Shown: positions 44,523-54,483 of the stretch, piece after piece | Numbering within the stretch: position 1 is the first letter of the stretch | Layout of the letters: each line of letters begins with the position of its first letter | DNA from: Adhaeribacter arboris | GTDB taxonomy: Bacteria; Bacteroidota; Bacteroidia; Cytophagales; Hymenobacteraceae | Reading direction: 5' to 3' | Length of the DNA stretch: 64,000 nucleotides | Assembly: GCF_003023845.1 (NCBI RefSeq) | Contig: NZ_PYFT01000001.1 | Location: forward strand, 5,084,001 to 5,148,000 | Program-made: the position numbers and the translations under genes | The notes under the pieces: model-generated | What the model was told of the DNA's origin: nothing | Database searches by the model: none | The model's input: the letters and a program-made list of their open reading frames with translations, nothing else

Positions 44523-47012
44523 ATGAACATACAGAAAAAACTTAAAGACCTAAAAGACCAAAAGAGTTATAGTAATCCAGCCAAAAGGGTAATGGAGCAT
44601 TTAAAACCTATCCTTAGTAAGTCAAACGACTTGCGACAAAGATGGGTGTGGGAATTGCTTCAAAATGCAAGTGACTTGGGTGATAATGTTAAGGCAAGGT
44701 TTGAAATAACTGCTGACAGATTAAAATTCAGCCATAATGGAAAAGCTTTTTCATTGGACGAAGCATATAATCTAATTATGCCCGACTCTTCTAAAGATGA
44801 CGCAATAACACATAAGAAAAGTGTTATCGGACAGTTTGGAACAGGCTTTATTTCGACACATATACTTTCCAAGATTATACAAATAGAAGGAATCATTGAA
44901 GATGACGAGCAATTTTACACCTTTAACTTTCACCTTGACAGAAGCGAAAGAAACAACAAGGATTTTTTAATTCAATCAATTAAAGACGCAGAAGCAGAAT
45001 ATCGGGAAAATCTTGAAGAGATAGAAGAACTTCCAGAAAATGAATTTCAAACTTCATTTACTTATCACATTAATAATACATACTCTTCTTTGAAAGGACA
45101 AGAAATTGTTGAAGATGGAATTAAAAATTTCAAAGAATTAATTCCATACGTTTTGACTTTTAGACCTCAATTAGCAGAAGTTGAAGTTATTGACCGCAGG
45201 ACAACGACAACCAAATGGACATTCAAACGTGATGAAGTTGAAACTGATATTGATGACCTCGTAATTATTAAAACGATTTGCTATAAAAATAGCAAACATA
45301 TTGAAGACAGATTAATAGGTAATATTATTCAAAAAGGCACTGAAATTGCCTTCCCAATCGAAGAAATCGAAGATGGAAAATTTCAGTTACTTCCTTTTCC
45401 TAATAATTGCCCATTACTGTTTTGTGCATTTCCTATGATTGGAACTAGTCATTTTGATTTTCCTGTAGTTATTCACAGTGAAAAATTCGATCCCAATGAA
45501 GCAAGAGATGGAATTGAAATCTCTCAACATGATCTAGAAAACAGAAATAGGCTCATAGAAGCTAAAGATGCTTTCTTGAGATTATTAAAAATAATTGAAG
45601 GTTATGAATGGACTAATACATTTAATATTTCTTTGCTTTTCAGTCCTGATTTTAATGATTACTCTGTAAAAACTTGGTTTACCAATTTAATTTTTAAACC
45701 AATTAAAGAAGGTTTACACAAAACTAAAATGATTGAATTGGATGAGTCCTTAATTAAGAATAAACGACTTTCATTAAGTCAAGTTTATATTCCGTATACA
45801 GATAGGAGATTAAAAAATTACACAGAACAGGTAACAGATATTTATAATTTTGCTTTCAAGACAATACCAACTTTGTTACCCAAAAAAGACCATTTTTTAA
45901 GTTGGTATGAAGTTTTGGATTTTGAAATTTTTACAGATGAAAAACTTGACTTAGAAGAGCTAACAAAAAAGATTTCCGAAGAAGTTGATTCGCTTGACAA
46001 GTTTTGTTCTGAATATTCAATGGATGAAACAGCAGCGATTGAATTTTTGATTGATTTTATAAGATTCATTTTAGCGCAAGAAAAAGATGAACTTTTTGAT
46101 AAATATAAATTGATACTGAATCAAAGTAATCAGCTTTGTTATTTGAAAGGAATGAAATTAGATCTAATTGATTGTAAAGGACTGAAAGATGGTTATGATG
46201 AGAAACTAAAAGACATTTACTATTCCATATCAGACACTGAGTGCCGTGATATTTTACTTCATAAGGACTTTGAGCAAATTGATGGACTCATTGAGGAAAA
46301 TGATAAATATGAATTTGAGAAATTAGCAAAAGATACTGACGAAGAACTTCGGAACTATGAAGGGAATTTTCAAGATGAAAATTTTTTGCTTATCCTAAAA
46401 AACCTTTTCAATTGGTATACAACTTGTGGACTTTCGGAAGAAACCTTAACAAACTTGTTTCGATTCTTTTCCTCTAATAAATCTCAATTGTATCTTAATA
46501 CAAAGACGTCAGAAGAATTGGAATATGCTTTTGATATTGAGATTAGTGGTAAAAGTGAAGTATTAGCAAAACTTGCTAACAGTTCGCTTTTGGAGAACGA
46601 ATTAGAAACTATTGCGGATAATCCAGTATTGATTTCAAATTTTATTGAGTGGCTAAATAATAAGCAAGAAGATCATCCTGAAGAAGAATTGGGAAATATC
46701 GGAGAAGAGTTTTTATATCATCGACTTTGCCAAATATTTGGAGAAAATAGAGTGCTTTGGGAAGACAAATCTGAATATGATTTCCGAGTTCTTGAAATGG
46801 ACTTGACAACAACAAAATACTTCATAGACGCGAAGACAACAGGTAAGGGTATTGCAAACAGTGACAATGTTCCCTTTTTTATGCGGACTGCACAATGGTC
46901 TTTCCTTGACAAACAACAAGCAAGGAACAAGTATATAATAGCAAGGATTTTCAAAACCGGTAGGACAATTGACATTAAGTATTTAAGGTTAAACAAACAA
47001 TCACTACAATAA
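44523..47012 (+). CDS. GHKL (Hsp90/sacsin-like) ATPase with C-terminal DUF3883 domain
   Basis: An 829-residue protein. The N-terminus is a GHKL ATP-binding fold: WVWELLQNASDL (N box), a KFSHNGKAF strand and IGQFGTGFIST (G-rich lid). A long middle domain follows. The C-terminal about 110 residues form a DUF3883/PD-(D/E)XK-like domain: GNIGEEFLYHRL, then SEYDFRV and YFIDAKTTGKG (D-x-K type). This NOV-like architecture occurs in prokaryotic defence islands; a nuclease role is inferred from the DAK motif. It stands alone between two related hairpins. Confidence 0.75.
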   Translation: MNIQKKLKDLKDQKSYSNPAKRVMEHLKPILSKSNDLRQRWVWELLQNASDLGDNVKARFEITADRLKFSHNGKAFSLDEAYNLIMPDSSKDDAITHKKSVIGQFGTGFISTHILSKIIQIEGIIEDDEQFYTFNFHLDRSERNNKDFLIQSIKDAEAEYRENLEEIEELPENEFQTSFTYHINNTYSSLKGQEIVEDGIKNFKELIPYVLTFRPQLAEVEVIDRRTTTTKWTFKRDEVETDIDDLVIIKTICYKNSKHIEDRLIGNIIQKGTEIAFPIEEIEDGKFQLLPFPNNCPLLFCAFPMIGTSHFDFPVVIHSEKFDPNEARDGIEISQHDLENRNRLIEAKDAFLRLLKIIEGYEWTNTFNISLLFSPDFNDYSVKTWFTNLIFKPIKEGLHKTKMIELDESLIKNKRLSLSQVYIPYTDRRLKNYTEQVTDIYNFAFKTIPTLLPKKDHFLSWYEVLDFEIFTDEKLDLEELTKKISEEVDSLDKFCSEYSMDETAAIEFLIDFIRFILAQEKDELFDKYKLILNQSNQLCYLKGMKLDLIDCKGLKDGYDEKLKDIYYSISDTECRDILLHKDFEQIDGLIEENDKYEFEKLAKDTDEELRNYEGNFQDENFLLILKNLFNWYTTCGLSEETLTNLFRFFSSNKSQLYLNTKTSEELEYAFDIEISGKSEVLAKLANSSLLENELETIADNPVLISNFIEWLNNKQEDHPEEELGNIGEEFLYHRLCQIFGENRVLWEDKSEYDFRVLEMDLTTTKYFIDAKTTGKGIANSDNVPFFMRTAQWSFLDKQQARNKYIIARIFKTGRTIDIKYLRLNKQSLQ

Positions 47013-47916: not shown

Positions 47917-48060
47917 TTCGGCTATCTGAATAGAGTTCTGACAACATTTCTTATGCCTTTCTGATTAGTACTGCGGTTAAGGAATGTATACCTATCGTAG
48001 GAATAAAAGCTTGTCAAGGACTACTTAAACTATTTCAAAGGCAAATTTTATTAATAAAAT

Positions 48061-48221
48061 TTGTTCAGGAGTAAACCATCCTCAACTCATAAACAAAAAT
48101 CCCCTTTTTTTAAAAGAACCGTTACGGGCAACCCTTTCTTTTTCAGACACTTTTGACTTGAACCGAAGCCAGTTTTCAGGTCATTCTGTTCAAATATAAA
48201 GGATGGTTTACTCCTGAACAA
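48061..48221. repeat. Perfect 22-bp inverted repeat upstream of the serine recombinase
   Basis: Arms at 48061-48082 and 48200-48221 are exact reverse complements, 117 bases apart; the right arm ends 14 bases before the recombinase ATG. No gene lies in this 319-base spacer. The position suggests a recombination or res-type site for the adjacent recombinase, or the ends of a small inserted element. Confidence 0.6.
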
Positions 48222-48235
48222 TGCCGGGACGCCAC

Positions 48236-48874
48236 ATGAAAAGAGCAATTGCCTACTATCGGGTTTCTACGACCCGGCAAGGCCGGAGTGGTTTGGGATT
48301 GGAAGCCCAACAAAATGCCGTGGAACAATACTGTAAACGGAATGATTACGCTTTGCTTAGCGAGGTAGTGGAGGTGCAATCCACTCGCAAGTACCGCCCG
48401 GGTTTATTTCAGACCCTGGACTTGTGCCGCCAGCACCAAGCGACCTTGATGGTAGCCCGGTTAGACCGGCTCGGCCGGGATGTCGAACAAATCGCCGGGA
48501 TCGTCAAGTCGAAGGTGGAAATTATTGTCGCGGATAATCCCCACGCAAACCGGTTTACCATCCATATTCTGGCGGCGGTGGCCGAGGAGCAAAGGCAGCG
48601 CATCAGCGAAACCACCAAAGAGGCATTAAGGGCGGCAAAAAAGAGAGGTGTGGCGCTGGGAAAGAATGGCAAAGCCCTCTCCGTGGCGAATAGGAAAGCC
48701 GCTCAAGAATTTGCGCATCAACTCTCTCCCATCATCAGGCGCTTACGAAACCGGGGCATTATCTCGGTGCGGGCTGTGTCCGAGGAATTAAATAAGAGAG
48801 GAATACCGACCTTTCGGGTAGGCGGAAAATGGCATCCGAGTACGGTTTATACCTTGATGAACCGGCTGAAATGA
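48236..48874 (+). CDS. Serine recombinase (resolvase/invertase family)
   Basis: A 212-residue small serine recombinase. AIAYYRVSTTRQGRSGLGLEAQ carries the nucleophile serine (S11); VARLDRLGRDV and the later EEQRQRISETTKEAL are the conserved catalytic-domain helices. A C-terminal HTH (IISVRAVSEELNKRGIPT followed by WHPSTVYTLMNRL) binds DNA. ATG 48236 gives the canonical start; an in-frame ATG at 48221 overlaps the inverted repeat. It lies just upstream of the peptide/radical SAM locus. Confidence 0.88.
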   Translation: MKRAIAYYRVSTTRQGRSGLGLEAQQNAVEQYCKRNDYALLSEVVEVQSTRKYRPGLFQTLDLCRQHQATLMVARLDRLGRDVEQIAGIVKSKVEIIVADNPHANRFTIHILAAVAEEQRQRISETTKEALRAAKKRGVALGKNGKALSVANRKAAQEFAHQLSPIIRRLRNRGIISVRAVSEELNKRGIPTFRVGGKWHPSTVYTLMNRLK

Positions 48875-48921: not shown

Positions 48922-49101
48922 ATGATTTTTGAATTCGAAAATGACCTCCTATTTGATGATAGGGCGCTACTTGAAAATAAGCTCGGTGCAGGCTGTTTAA
49001 GCAATACCGATGTAAATACTGACTGCGATTGTTCCGGTTATACCGCTATTCCAGACGATGAAGGAACTGATCCCGCAAAAAGCTCCGGAACTGCTGCTTA
49101 G
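48922..49101 (+). CDS. Putative RiPP precursor peptide
   Basis: A 59-residue open frame: an acidic leader-like part (MIFEFENDLLFDDRALLENKL) followed by GAGCLSNTDVNTDCDCSGYT and an Ala/Gly/Ser-rich tail. Three cysteines cluster in 14 residues after a Gly-Ala-Gly, and the frame overlaps the start of the radical SAM/SPASM gene by 44 bases, consistent with translational coupling. Small size, leader-core layout and its partner suggest a ribosomally made, post-translationally modified peptide. No known precursor family is recognised. Confidence 0.6.
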   Translation: MIFEFENDLLFDDRALLENKLGAGCLSNTDVNTDCDCSGYTAIPDDEGTDPAKSSGTAA

Positions 49102-50392
49102 CCTAGTGAATCCGGAATACGGGTACGCGGTCAATTGTGCTTACCCTAATTCCTTTCGACTATTGAACCGCGGCCAGTATGAAATCGTGCAGTCCATCAA
49201 TAATCGGGATGACATTCAAACCCTGGCTATTCAGTTAAGGATGCCATCCGAAAGGCTGCACCAGTTCCTGTTACTCTTGAGTAAAACGGAAATTGTCCGG
49301 TTCGATAATAGCTTTAGCCTACCGAAGAAGTCAGCGAAACCAAAATCCTTGAATTTTTGGATTCATACCACCAATGCGTGCAATCTGGGTTGCAGTTACT
49401 GCTATATTTCGACTTTAAATACCGGCAAGGGGATGAATGATACCGTCAGGCAGCAGTTAATGTATAAGCTGCTGGAAGTGGTAAAGGTAAGAGGCATCAA
49501 GCAGATCAAACTGCGGCTGGCCGGCGGGGAACCGATGGGGCAATTCAATGCCTGGAAAGCCTTCATTCCCGCAGCAGCAACTATTTTAGCTGAGGCTGGC
49601 TGTAAGCTGGACGTCGCCTTTATTACTAATCTGACCCTCTTGAATGAGGATATTCTTGAATTTTCTAAAAAGCACCGGGTAAGTTACGGCGTTTCGTTGG
49701 ATGGCGTGGCAGAGATTCATGATGCCACCCGAAGGTTTCGGTCTGGTTCCGGCTCCTTCCAGTTGGTCGATACCAACTTGCGCAGGCTAGTGGCGGAAAA
49801 GATACCGGTGTCGGTGAATACCGTTGTGAGTAATGTTAATATCATCGGATTACCCGATCTCACCCGCTATCTTATTTCCTTAGATATTCCTTTTCGGTAT
49901 TCGATTGTGAAAGGCGCGGCGATTGATGCCGCGTTGCTGGATAACTATCTGGCCGCCTCCCACGCCATTATGGGAGAAGCGATAGAGACGGGCTGGCAAT
50001 TCTCCCAGCGATACCAGTTTTGTGATTTGAAGCCAAACGAGTTAGGGTTCCAAACCTGTGCTTCCGGCTTTTCTGGGGGAGCCATCTACGTCGATGGTTC
50101 TTTTAAGTATTGCCACGTGCACTTTGGCAAAGAATCTGATTCGTCTCGTTCTATCTTTAATGAGGAATTAGACTTGGTGGCAATGATAGAGAGCGGGCAG
50201 CATGACGAAGAGATAAGATCGGCAGATTGCCGAAAATGCCGCTACCGCTCGGTTTGTACGAGTGGCTGCCCGGTTTACCGGGTGGAGGGTAAAGACCCGC
50301 AATGCAGTCTTTACCATCGGTTCATTCCCCAATATTATGAACTTCAGGCCAAAGAGCGATTGCGTTTATTGCGTCAATATGAGATGATCTAG
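49058..50392 (+). CDS. Radical SAM/SPASM peptide-modifying enzyme
   Basis: A 444-residue enzyme. Residues 1-90 look like a winged-helix leader-recognition (PqqD/RRE-like) domain. The radical SAM cluster is C108-x3-C112-x2-C115 in NACNLGCSYCY, followed by LRLAGGEPMG and the GVSLDGVAEIHDATR segment. The C-terminal SPASM domain has CHVHF and ADCRKCRYRSVCTSGCP with a final QCSLYH, supplying ligands for auxiliary iron-sulfur clusters. Such enzymes form thioether or other crosslinks in peptides. Overlap with the Cys-containing peptide gene implies that it is the substrate. Confidence 0.85.
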   Translation: MKELIPQKAPELLLSLVNPEYGYAVNCAYPNSFRLLNRGQYEIVQSINNRDDIQTLAIQLRMPSERLHQFLLLLSKTEIVRFDNSFSLPKKSAKPKSLNFWIHTTNACNLGCSYCYISTLNTGKGMNDTVRQQLMYKLLEVVKVRGIKQIKLRLAGGEPMGQFNAWKAFIPAAATILAEAGCKLDVAFITNLTLLNEDILEFSKKHRVSYGVSLDGVAEIHDATRRFRSGSGSFQLVDTNLRRLVAEKIPVSVNTVVSNVNIIGLPDLTRYLISLDIPFRYSIVKGAAIDAALLDNYLAASHAIMGEAIETGWQFSQRYQFCDLKPNELGFQTCASGFSGGAIYVDGSFKYCHVHFGKESDSSRSIFNEELDLVAMIESGQHDEEIRSADCRKCRYRSVCTSGCPVYRVEGKDPQCSLYHRFIPQYYELQAKERLRLLRQYEMI

Positions 50393-50431
50393 CCAATACA
50401 ATTATGCCCCGTTCCTTAGGATGCTGCGTCA

Positions 50432-50905
50432 TTGGCGATTACCATTTCCCTTTTAGCCTTGCTAGCTACCTTTTATCAACTGTACTTGCAACGAGTTCAT
50501 AATGAAAAATCGCTCAAGACGCTGGTTCAAATTGATTTGCTGGATCGGGATAAGCTGATTTTTGTGCATATTCAGAATAATGGCGTCGGACCGTTAATAA
50601 TAGATAAGCTTACCTTTTTCAAAAATAACCAGCGTTATTCGAGCATCGAAGATTGTTTAGACCTCAATCCTAAATTATACCAGCATATAGCGATCACCGA
50701 AGCGGTGAAGAAGGTTATTCTGCCCGGAAATTATCTGGAGGTCTTTTCAACTCGATTAGCAGAGAAGGCTGATGATAAGGAAGTGGAAGATGTTCGGGAG
50801 CAGCTTTCTGTTCTTAGATTAAAGGTAGAGGGACGAGATATTTACAATAATAAAGTTACTGCCGAACGAGACCTGCACTGGTTTTTAAGACACCATGTTT
50901 CCTAA
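50432..50905 (+). CDS. Membrane-anchored hypothetical protein, copy 1
   Basis: A 157-residue protein with one N-terminal hydrophobic segment (ITISLLALLATFYQLYL) and a soluble domain beginning LVQIDLLDRDKLIFVHIQNNGVGP. A TTG at 50432 is the only reasonable start (a TAG precedes it) and is conserved in the second copy at 52321. It lies 39 bases after the radical SAM gene. The first about 65 residues are almost identical in the two copies whereas the rest diverge. Immunity, export or regulatory roles are possible but unproven. Confidence 0.65.
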   Translation: MAITISLLALLATFYQLYLQRVHNEKSLKTLVQIDLLDRDKLIFVHIQNNGVGPLIIDKLTFFKNNQRYSSIEDCLDLNPKLYQHIAITEAVKKVILPGNYLEVFSTRLAEKADDKEVEDVREQLSVLRLKVEGRDIYNNKVTAERDLHWFLRHHVS

Positions 50906-50978: not shown

Positions 50979-52133
<1,155 letters not shown>

Positions 52134-52205
52134 GTTTTCAATGAAAATTATTATCGGCATAGTGAATAAGACAACTGTATAGAGCCGCTGAAAAGTTACA
52201 TTCAT

Positions 52206-52277
52206 CGGGTGGTGGGAAAAGACCCGCAATCCAGCCTTTATCTATTGCGTTTATTGCGTCAATATGAAATGATCTAG
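52206..52277 (+). pseudogene. C-terminal remnant of a second radical SAM/SPASM gene
   Basis: The frame reads RVVGKDPQSSLY joined to LLRLLRQYEMI and a TAG, matching the last residues of the enzyme ending at 50392 (VEGKDPQCSLYH ... RLLRQYEMI) with about 14 residues deleted and the SPASM cysteine replaced by serine. It shows that the duplicated block included the 3' end of the radical SAM gene. Confidence 0.7.
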
Positions 52278-52320
52278 CTAATTTTAATCCCGAATACCTA
52301 TTCTTTAGGATGCTGCGTCA

Positions 52321-52794
52321 TTGGCGATTACCATTTCCCTTTTAGCCTTGCTAGCTACCTTTTATCAACTGTACTTGCAACGAGTTCATAATGAAAAATC
52401 GCTCAAGCCCCTAGTTCAAATTGATTTGCTGGATCGGGATAAGCTGATTTTTGTGCATATTCAGAATAATGGCGTCGGACCGTTAATAATAGATAAGCTT
52501 ACCTTTTTCATAAATGACAAGAGCTATGGTAACATCGAAGACTGTTTAGCACTCGACCCCAAGTCTTATCAGCATCTGTCAATTACGGAAGCGGTAAAGA
52601 AAGTTATCTTGCCCGGAACCTACTTGGAGGTTTTCTCAATTCGGTTTGCAGAGCAGGATACCTGTGAAGAAATAGACAATGTCCGGCAACAGCTATCCGT
52701 GCTTAAATTGAAGTTGGAAGGTCGGGATATTTACAATAATAGGATTATCGCCAAAAGATACCTGCACTGGTTTATAAGACACCACATTTGCTAA
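52321..52794 (+). CDS. Membrane-anchored hypothetical protein, copy 2
   Basis: A 157-residue paralogue of the gene at 50432. From about 15 bases upstream to codon 64 the DNA is nearly identical (codon 30 differs, Pro for Thr), including the TTG start; after that it diverges sharply while keeping length and the common skeleton (AVKKVILPG.YLEVFS, RDIYNN, LHWF.RHH). The abrupt boundary suggests gene conversion or selection for diversity in the soluble domain. Confidence 0.65.
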   Translation: MAITISLLALLATFYQLYLQRVHNEKSLKPLVQIDLLDRDKLIFVHIQNNGVGPLIIDKLTFFINDKSYGNIEDCLALDPKSYQHLSITEAVKKVILPGTYLEVFSIRFAEQDTCEEIDNVRQQLSVLKLKLEGRDIYNNRIIAKRYLHWFIRHHIC

Positions 52795-52905: not shown

Positions 52906-53169
<264 letters not shown>

Positions 53170-53193: not shown

Positions 53194-54483
53194 ATGCCAG
53201 CCAAAGTAATCAACTTTACTAAAGCATGTTTGACTAATTTGCCCTTGCCAGAGGCGGGAAAGCGGAAATACTATAAGGATACCCAATTAAAGGGACTGAT
53301 CCTGGATGTGCGTTCCAACGGCTCCAAGTCGTTTTACATTTATAAAAAGATAAGTGGTAAACCAGAACGGCTGTTCTTAGGTATCTTTCCCGAAATTACC
53401 ATTGAGAATGCCAGAAAAAAAGCCAAAATAAAAATTGGCGAAATCGCTCAAGGAAAAAATCCGCAAGAAGAAGCTCGCCAGGTTCGCAATGAAATGTCGT
53501 TTGAGCAGCTTTTCGACCAGTATATGAAGCGATATAGCAAAGTGCACAAGAAGTCATGGCGCTACGATGAACGGGAAGTGAACCGGTTTTTAGCTCATTG
53601 GTTCAAACGCCGTCTTTCAGACATCAAGCGGGTCGAGGTACAGCGCTTGCACGAAAAAATCTACGCAGAAAGTGGCCTCTACCAAGCCAATCGCCTTTTA
53701 GAACGGATACGGGCGATTTTTAATAAGGCACTCGAATGGGGATGGGAAGGTACCAATCCCGCTATTGGCATTAAGAAATACAAGGAAAAGAGCCGGGATC
53801 GGTTCATTCAGCCAGTAGAAATGCCTTTTATCATCCGCTCTCTCAATGAAGAAACGAACGAGACGGTAAAAGATTATCTCTGGATATTGCTTCTAACGGG
53901 TGCTCGCAAAACGAATACCCTCATGATGCGATGGGAGCAGATCAATTGGGAGCGGAATGAATGGCGAATTCCGGATACTAAAAATGGAGAGCCGGTTACC
54001 GTTCCTCTGATCGAACGCGCACTGGAAATATTAAAGCGCCGTGAAATGACCTCACAGAGCCCGTGGGTTTTCCCGCAAGAAGCGGATAATGAAAAGCACT
54101 TCGTTAACACTAAACGTGCCTGGCGGCGCACTTTGGAGCGAGCCACGCTTTACCTATGGCAACAAAACGAAAGGATTGCTCCATTATTGGAAAAATTGGA
54201 ATGTAATGTGCCTGTTTTTCTCCTAAGTGAGATATTATTTAAAGCTGTGATCAAACGGGCAGAAAAAGAAAAAATCCCGCTTCCCGCAAGCCTGCTGGAT
54301 ATTCGCTTGCATGACATTCGTCGTACTTTCGGCAGTTACCAAGCGCTTACCGGTGCCAGCTTGCAAGTCATTGGCAAGAGCTTAGGTCACAAATCTACCC
54401 AAGCTACACAAATATACGCGCGACTCAATCTCGATGCAGTTCGTGCCTCCATCGAAAAGGCTACTGGCGCTATGTTTGATTAA
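53194..54483 (+). CDS. P4-type tyrosine integrase
   Basis: A 429-residue integrase with an N-terminal DUF4102 arm-binding domain (TQLKGLILDVRSNGSKSFYIYKK, FLGIFPEITIENARKKA), a core-binding domain, and a catalytic domain with LLTGARKTNTLMMRWEQI (Arg), LHDIRRTFGSY (His/Arg box), GHKSTQATQIYARL (Tyr). It lies 174 bases from the tRNA-fMet half and points away from it, thus heading the element that fills the rest of the window. Confidence 0.92.
   Translation: MPAKVINFTKACLTNLPLPEAGKRKYYKDTQLKGLILDVRSNGSKSFYIYKKISGKPERLFLGIFPEITIENARKKAKIKIGEIAQGKNPQEEARQVRNEMSFEQLFDQYMKRYSKVHKKSWRYDEREVNRFLAHWFKRRLSDIKRVEVQRLHEKIYAESGLYQANRLLERIRAIFNKALEWGWEGTNPAIGIKKYKEKSRDRFIQPVEMPFIIRSLNEETNETVKDYLWILLLTGARKTNTLMMRWEQINWERNEWRIPDTKNGEPVTVPLIERALEILKRREMTSQSPWVFPQEADNEKHFVNTKRAWRRTLERATLYLWQQNERIAPLLEKLECNVPVFLLSEILFKAVIKRAEKEKIPLPASLLDIRLHDIRRTFGSYQALTGASLQVIGKSLGHKSTQATQIYARLNLDAVRASIEKATGAMFD

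What the first reader, a model, noticed from the sequence alone, without database searches (positions are those of the whole stretch)
48922..50905. Compact putative RiPP locus: Cys-rich 59-residue peptide overlapping a radical SAM/SPASM enzyme
The peptide frame (48922-49101) has an acidic leader, a GAG-C...C-x-C core and overlaps the enzyme gene by 44 bases in another frame. The enzyme shows an N-terminal recognition-like domain, CxxxCxxC and a full SPASM cysteine set. The peptide matches no precursor class known to me. A small membrane-anchored protein follows immediately. Together they could be an undescribed peptide-maturation system on a mobile element.
Basis: partly seen in the sequence, partly recalled or inferred. 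Interest (0 to 1): 0.85.

Follow-up and report, generated by a model that had tools for sequence, protein, structure and literature searches.

The report
Resolvase-linked Asp-Cys peptide maturation module
A short peptide gene and the radical enzyme that most likely modifies it form a real, conserved, mobile four-gene unit in Bacteroidota; the family had been predicted from sequence in 2022, but its chemistry and purpose are unknown and its constant membrane partner and DNA-recombinase control region look new.

Summary
The 59-codon frame (48922-49101) is a conserved gene: a precursor with an xLFD[D/E] leader lies just upstream of the enzyme in 33 of 33 distinct loci, under purifying selection, and 34 of 34 precursors carry Asp-Cys.

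The enzyme has the radical-SAM triad, seven invariant SPASM cysteines and a predicted N-terminal recognition-like domain.

It is not wholly undescribed: PMC9062424 (passages read) predicted 'Cluster 59', a recombinase, rSAM enzyme and peptide with repeated Asp-Cys, modification unknown. Very probably the same family.

Beyond those passages: (i) a membrane-anchored protein in 32 of 32 intact loci; (ii) a two-site, res-like region before the recombinase, absent from 9 of 9 recombinase-less loci, 8 of which have a divergent XRE-type gene; (iii) an open frame fusing recombinase to precursor in 4 loci; (iv) second copies of the membrane-protein gene bracketing AbiE or DUF4143-ATPase cargo.

Best reading: an element-borne RiPP operon under control of its own resolvase or an XRE repressor.

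The parts
48060..48097 (.). site I: imperfectly palindromic recombinase-type site, distal to the recombinase gene
   Evidence: same place in all 24 aligned recombinase loci; absent from 9 of 9 recombinase-less loci
48186..48221 (.). recombinase-proximal palindromic site; with site I it forms a 22/22 inverted repeat (48061-48082 / 48200-48221)
   Evidence: six of ten examined 50-53% recombinase relatives have a palindrome of at least 82% identity at a similar place
48221..48874 (+). small serine recombinase (resolvase/invertase type); by the alignment homologues start at the place of the ATG at 48236
   Evidence: Pfam Resolvase 4.6e-25; PHROG DNA invertase; two catalytic-region motifs in 23 of 23
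48922..49101 (+). precursor peptide: leader ENDLLFDD, core TDCDCSGY
49058..50392 (+). radical SAM/SPASM peptide maturase with predicted N-terminal recognition-like domain (about residues 1-75)
50432..50905 (+). membrane-anchored small protein, copy 1 (N-terminal helix and beta-sandwich domain)
50985..52133 (+). cargo: AAA_14/DUF4143 ATPase (PADLOC candidate PDC-S01)
52201..52282 (+). remnant of a duplicated 3' end of the maturase gene
52321..52794 (+). membrane-anchored small protein, copy 2 (78% identical to copy 1)

Best explanation
The unit res-like sites - resolvase - precursor - radical SAM maturase - membrane protein makes a ribosomal peptide that is modified after translation. Shown: conserved linkage, conserved leader, purifying selection, invariant Asp-Cys and complete cluster-binding cysteines. 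Inferred, likely: the xLFDD leader binds the enzyme's N-terminal domain, and the 5'-deoxyadenosyl radical made at C108/C112/C115 attacks residues of the Asp/Asn-Cys core. Inferred, weaker (about 0.55): the product is a Cys thioether to a neighbouring residue, most simply the preceding Asp/Asn. Inferred: the promoter of the operon lies in the region holding the two resolvase sites, so that the resolvase controls it as resolvases control their own genes (recalled analogy); in lineages without the resolvase an XRE repressor does so. Inferred, weak (about 0.25): the peptide acts together with the membrane protein to keep or protect the mobile element, as the AbiE/DUF4143 cargo beside it suggests.
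For: Precursor in 33 of 33 distinct loci; LFD invariant in 34 of 34 precursors, next residue D in 33; 77 of 87 core Cys directly follow D or N. pS 0.56 against pN 0.19 over 13 pairs. Core units multiply: 5 Asp-Cys in L106 and in L107, and two precursors in L028. Seven invariant SPASM Cys in 23 of 23. Best Foldseek hits TigE, SkfB, CteB and ChlB, all RiPP maturases. N-terminal beta3-alpha3 element order. Membrane protein in 32 of 32 intact loci; in the order draw its strong matches fall in exactly the 12 of 390 genomes that have the enzyme. Enzyme and recombinase distances correlate (r 0.65, 23 loci, 0 of 2000 permutations as high; enzyme-membrane protein r 0.67, 32 loci, likewise). In the order draw recombinases of 68% identity or more lie only in enzyme genomes; the next are at 53%. 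Two sites in every recombinase locus, none in 9 recombinase-less ones. XRE-type gene divergent in 8 of 9 recombinase-less loci.
Against: No chemistry was observed. The only gene clusters present in more than half of the 35 neighbourhoods are membrane protein, enzyme and recombinase: no constant protease or exporter, unlike many secreted RiPPs. No PqqD-type Pfam match. The catalytic core and SPASM loops of the model have low confidence (segments below pLDDT 50). Single sites are only partly palindromic (best identity 0.41-1.0; random mean 0.42, 99.9th percentile 0.75), and the palindromic consensus was forced by using both strands. The correlation of distances also reflects common descent. 9 of 32 intact loci have no recombinase at all.
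Confidence: 0.75

Rival explanations
1. The recombinase and its sites serve only DNA recombination (multimer or cointegrate resolution, or excision) and ride along with the peptide operon without regulating it.
For: Relatives at 50-53% identity (10 of the 14 places at 47-53% were examined): 6 of 10 hold a ParA-like motif and 6 of 10 have a palindrome of at least 82% identity just upstream, as expected of plasmid resolvases. The interval between the sites is never inverted in the 24 aligned loci (read by eye).
Against: In the order draw the clade at 68% identity or more is found only in genomes with this module. A divergent XRE-type gene stands in its place in 8 of 9 recombinase-less loci. In four loci the frame runs from recombinase into precursor. 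Sites do not flank the unit.
Confidence: 0.4
2. The modified peptide is a bacteriocin and the membrane protein is its immunity protein.
For: Constant co-occurrence of the membrane protein; multiplied, variable core repeats.
Against: No exporter or leader protease among the genes common to most loci. Second copies of the membrane protein are sometimes broken, and its helix is followed by R/H/K, which suggests a cytoplasmic domain (inference).
Confidence: 0.22
3. The peptide stays inside the cell as a metal- or redox-binding maturation product or a partner subunit (like SCIFF, QhpC or cofactor peptides).
For: No constant exporter; Cys-rich core and acidic tail; QhpD-type and SCIFF-type maturases are among the 25 best profile matches shown.
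Against: Patchy distribution (12 of 390 genomes of the order, none in the 2 other same-genus genomes listed) on mobile DNA does not suit a housekeeping cofactor.
Confidence: 0.2
4. The short frame is a regulatory upstream frame that only couples translation to the enzyme and is not a substrate.
For: 24 of 32 scored precursor frames overlap the enzyme start.
Against: Eight of 32 do not overlap yet keep leader and core; core repeats and tandem precursors; purifying selection outside the overlap.
Confidence: 0.04

Closest known systems
Cluster 59 of PMC9062424 (predicted recombinase + rSAM + Asp-Cys peptide; uncharacterised there)
   Same: Recombinase, rSAM enzyme and peptide as a small cluster; conserved Asp-Cys motif in repeats (up to six there; up to five Asp-Cys here)
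   Different: The passages read name no membrane protein, recombinase sites, XRE variant, fused frames or cargo; they name no organisms for this cluster, so membership could not be checked by sequence
PapB ranthipeptide maturase (NF047865)
   Same: Best NCBIfam profile match (107.5 bits); radical SAM plus SPASM; Cys-containing substrate
   Different: Far below the cut-off of 340; the Cys-x3-Asp substrate motif (recalled) is in 0 of 34 precursors, Cys-x3-Asp/Glu in 1 of 34
TigE, SkfB, CteB and ChlB (solved RiPP maturases)
   Same: First four different proteins by Foldseek E-value, TM-score 0.41-0.62 of the query
   Different: 13-18% identity; their substrates and products differ (recalled)
Plasmid-type small serine resolvases of the same order
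   Same: 50-53% identity; strong palindrome just upstream in 6 of 10; ParA-like motif in 6 of 10
   Different: One strong palindrome rather than two sites about 125 bp apart; none of the 10 loci has a maturase or membrane-protein hit

Membership tests
radical SAM/SPASM RiPP maturation system | CxxxCxxC radical SAM core | tested here: met
   Pfam Radical_SAM 1.1e-14; C108, C112, C115 invariant in 23 of 23
radical SAM/SPASM RiPP maturation system | seven-cysteine SPASM domain | tested here: met
   C334, C352, C391, C394, C400, C404, C416 invariant in 23 of 23; spacing rule recalled
radical SAM/SPASM RiPP maturation system | conserved adjacent precursor with leader and core | tested here: met
   33 of 33 distinct loci; selection
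radical SAM/SPASM RiPP maturation system | leader-recognition (RRE/PqqD-like) domain | tested here: inconclusive
   predicted beta3-alpha3 order at residues 12-75, block pLDDT 84 or more up to residue 80; no PqqD-type Pfam match in 23 members
radical SAM/SPASM RiPP maturation system | modified product | not testable with these tools
   needs mass spectrometry
PapB ranthipeptide maturases | NCBIfam NF047865 cut-off | tested here: not met
   107.5 of 340 bits
PapB ranthipeptide maturases | Cys-x3-Asp core motif | tested here: not met
   0 of 34 precursors
Cluster 59 (PMC9062424) | recombinase beside rSAM and peptide | tested here: met
   23 of 32 intact loci, the window among them
Cluster 59 (PMC9062424) | repeated Asp-Cys motif | tested here: met
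   Asp-Cys in 34 of 34 precursors; two or more in 19 of 34, the window (two) among them (counted from the list)
Cluster 59 (PMC9062424) | membership in the published sequence-similarity cluster | not testable with these tools
small serine recombinases | catalytic Ser motif and LDRLGRD-type motif | tested here: met
   23 of 23 for both; a third motif by regex in 21 of 23; motif meanings recalled
invertible promoter switch | both orientations of the interval found among relatives | tested here: not met
   same orientation in 24 of 24 aligned loci (read by eye)

The most novel reading that the evidence does not exclude
A mobile element carries a radical-modified peptide whose synthesis is read from its own resolution site. 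Resolvase sitting on two sites within the promoter region represses the peptide operon, so expression follows the presence, copy number or multimer state of the element, and the peptide, working through the membrane protein, penalises loss of the element or protects it. In Spirosoma-type copies the resolvase itself may be made as a fusion with the precursor and be modified. The core chemistry at Asp-Cys would be a linkage without characterised precedent.
Probability: 0.12. Interest if true: 0.85.

Novelty: new variant of a known kind. Interest (0 to 1): 0.55.

Why it matters
It gives a testable substrate/enzyme pair with an invariant Asp-Cys core for which PMC9062424 (passages read) knew no published parallel. 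It also adds a genetic control arrangement (resolvase sites or XRE-type regulator, and a constant membrane partner) that suggests a role in the life of mobile elements rather than ordinary secondary metabolism.

Tried and rejected
Phage origin: no confirmed relative in viral contigs; in plasmid and phage records 472 and 34 records match, every one at under 60% identity. Phase-variable inversion of the roughly 125-bp interval: rejected, same orientation in 24 of 24. Cassette bounded by recombination sites: rejected; apart from the two upstream sites only single weak scores appear, in L008 (18.4) and the window (15.1). rSAM remnant at every second membrane-protein copy: not so; of 11 loci tested only the window has one. 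Second membrane-protein copies as a separate cargo-borne lineage: not supported; in the tree first and second copy of L104, L028, L105 and the window pair with each other, though other second copies do not. Identity of the membrane protein: no Pfam family in more than 1 of 27 members, no PDB sequence match, weak fold matches to archaellum/pilin-like and immunoglobulin-like proteins. PADLOC: the enzyme matches only two viperin models, by its radical SAM core; not read as viperin.

Rows dropped before counts: L103 and L113 as duplicates of L026 and L022 (L113, the longer copy, shows a further membrane-protein match at +7284 that is not in the count of second copies); L027 (enzyme split in two segments) left out of tree and enzyme alignment but counted for the precursor; L006 and L007 not studied. 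The shorter loci L001, L003-L005 and L031-L043 are other versions of places already represented. The 13 pairs were chosen by hand; one pair was identical and four were saturated at silent sites. Of the six membrane-protein second copies not paired with their own first copy, no explanation was sought.

Full report
What is in the sequence. Upstream lies a serine recombinase (48221-48874; Pfam Resolvase) preceded by two related sites (48060-48097 and 48186-48221) that hold a 22/22 inverted repeat; at up to 3 mismatches it has no further copy in the window and one 3-mismatch match elsewhere in the genome. Downstream come a small membrane-anchored protein, a DUF4143 ATPase, a remnant of the enzyme's 3' end and a second copy of the membrane protein.

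Relatives. A phylum draw found close relatives of the enzyme in 4 of 395 genomes including its own, plus two weak matches not studied further. An order draw found it in 12 of 390 genomes, and not in the two other same-genus genomes listed. A pattern scan of the genome-contig collection found 23 loci in Mucilaginibacter, Spirosoma, Runella, Dyadobacter, Emticicia, Siphonobacter, Arcicella, Algoriphagus, Flavobacterium and Fibrisoma, and one contig labelled Phycisphaerales. IMG/VR gave none. After removing duplicates, 32 intact enzymes and one decayed copy (L027) were used.

The precursor is real. All 33 loci have a short frame upstream with LFD[D/E] in its leader; the pattern search found 32, and L104 has LFDE. 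Shuffled regions gave 0 of 6600 (mononucleotide shuffles). Among 34 precursors LFD is invariant, Asp-Cys is present in 34, Asp/Asn-Cys-Asp-Cys in 26, and 77 of 87 core cysteines follow Asp or Asn. Two or more Asp-Cys occur in 19 of 34, with five in L106 and in L107, and L028 has two precursors in tandem. Over 13 hand-chosen pairs, counting only codons outside the enzyme overlap, pS is 0.56 and pN 0.19; in the eight pairs where it could be computed dN/dS was 0.08-0.32. One pair was identical and four had saturated pS.

The enzyme. None of the 25 best NCBIfam matches shown (of 77) reaches its cut-off; the best is the PapB family, 107.5 of 340 bits. The cluster-binding cysteines are complete and invariant in 23 of 23. 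The model (mean pLDDT 78, weak in the radical and SPASM loops) has a confident N-terminal domain with beta3-alpha3 order. Foldseek ranks TigE, SkfB, CteB and ChlB first, at TM-scores of 0.41-0.62. Pfam shows no PqqD-type domain in any of 23 members, only weak winged-helix matches in a few. The Cys-x3-Asp motif of PapB substrates (recalled; the abstract start of PMC9413430 in the listing names Cys/Asp links) is in 0 of 34 precursors.

The membrane protein belongs to the unit. It is present in 32 of 32 intact loci. In the order draw its strong matches lie in exactly the 12 genomes with the enzyme; two further genomes have weak matches (3e-10, 4e-9). In L009, L010, L011, L014, L015, L018 and L027 it lies upstream, divergent from the recombinase, with the two sites between them; elsewhere it follows the enzyme. 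Its model (pLDDT 91) is an N-terminal helix and a beta-sandwich.

The control region. In 24 aligned recombinase loci both sites lie at the same places and the interval between them has one orientation. A matrix trained on these sites, and so circular for the positives, finds both upstream in every recombinase locus, 114-127 bp apart, and none in the 9 recombinase-less loci; two loci have one extra weak score each. Single sites are imperfect palindromes. In 8 of the 9 recombinase-less loci a divergent XRE-type gene stands upstream (seven read, of which two, L017 and L020, were confirmed as HTH_3 by Pfam; L106 by a 74% tblastn match); L012 has an XRE-type gene on the other strand, further away. 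On the enzyme tree presence and absence of the recombinase need three changes. In L019, L108, L109 and L112 the recombinase frame runs without a stop into the precursor (4 of 23). Ten of the 14 recombinase places at 47-53% identity were examined: ParA-like motif in 6, upstream palindrome of at least 82% identity in 6. I therefore read the recombinase as a captured plasmid-type resolvase and the sites as res-like, with repression of the operon as the likeliest added role, by analogy with transposon resolvases (recalled). This is not shown.

Cargo. Of 26 intact loci with the membrane protein downstream, 12 have a second copy or fragment in the same direction (one of them, L023, only 114 nt). Between the copies lie the DUF6088/AbiEii pair in nine and the DUF4143 ATPase in three, L108 having both; L023 has neither. 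The families were tested on L021, L016 and window proteins; in the other loci the names rest on clustering with these. In L104, L028, L105 and the window both copies are each other's nearest relatives in the tree, which points to repeated duplication or gene conversion; in the other loci they are not.

What is known. PMC9062424 (passages read; not the whole text) describes Cluster 59: a recombinase, an rSAM enzyme and a peptide with an Asp-Cys motif repeated up to six times, modification unknown. This fits so well that I take it as the same family. Searches for further work (open-access library only; listings and abstract starts) showed me no characterisation; subscription papers are mostly not covered.

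Verdict. A real, conserved, mobile RiPP-type module; predicted before, with chemistry for which I found no report, and with a control region and partner protein that the passages I read do not mention.

Noticed in passing
window 52975-53021 and 53194-54483: A 47-nt stretch resembling the 3' end of a tRNA gene (by eye, minus strand) lies about 170 nt before a tyrosine integrase (PHROG integrase); it is the only copy in the genome at up to 3 mismatches and ARAGORN calls no tRNA in the window. Possibly an attachment-site remnant.
   Followed up: partly
window 44523-47012: 829-aa protein matching the first half of PADLOC's TmtA model (5.7e-119), a candidate anti-phage defence gene near the module.
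   Followed up: no
L008 (contig labelled Phycisphaerales MAG): The module sits among Bacteroidota sequences in the enzyme tree, nearest the window; either a misbinned contig or transfer between phyla.
   Followed up: no
L012, L013, L014 (Mucilaginibacter pedocola); L108, L109, L110 (genome G667): Single genomes carry three copies of the module, with recombinase-type and XRE-type upstream regions in one genome.
   Followed up: partly
L027 4207-5518: Decayed maturase (two tblastn segments) with precursor, recombinase, sites and membrane protein still present.
   Followed up: no
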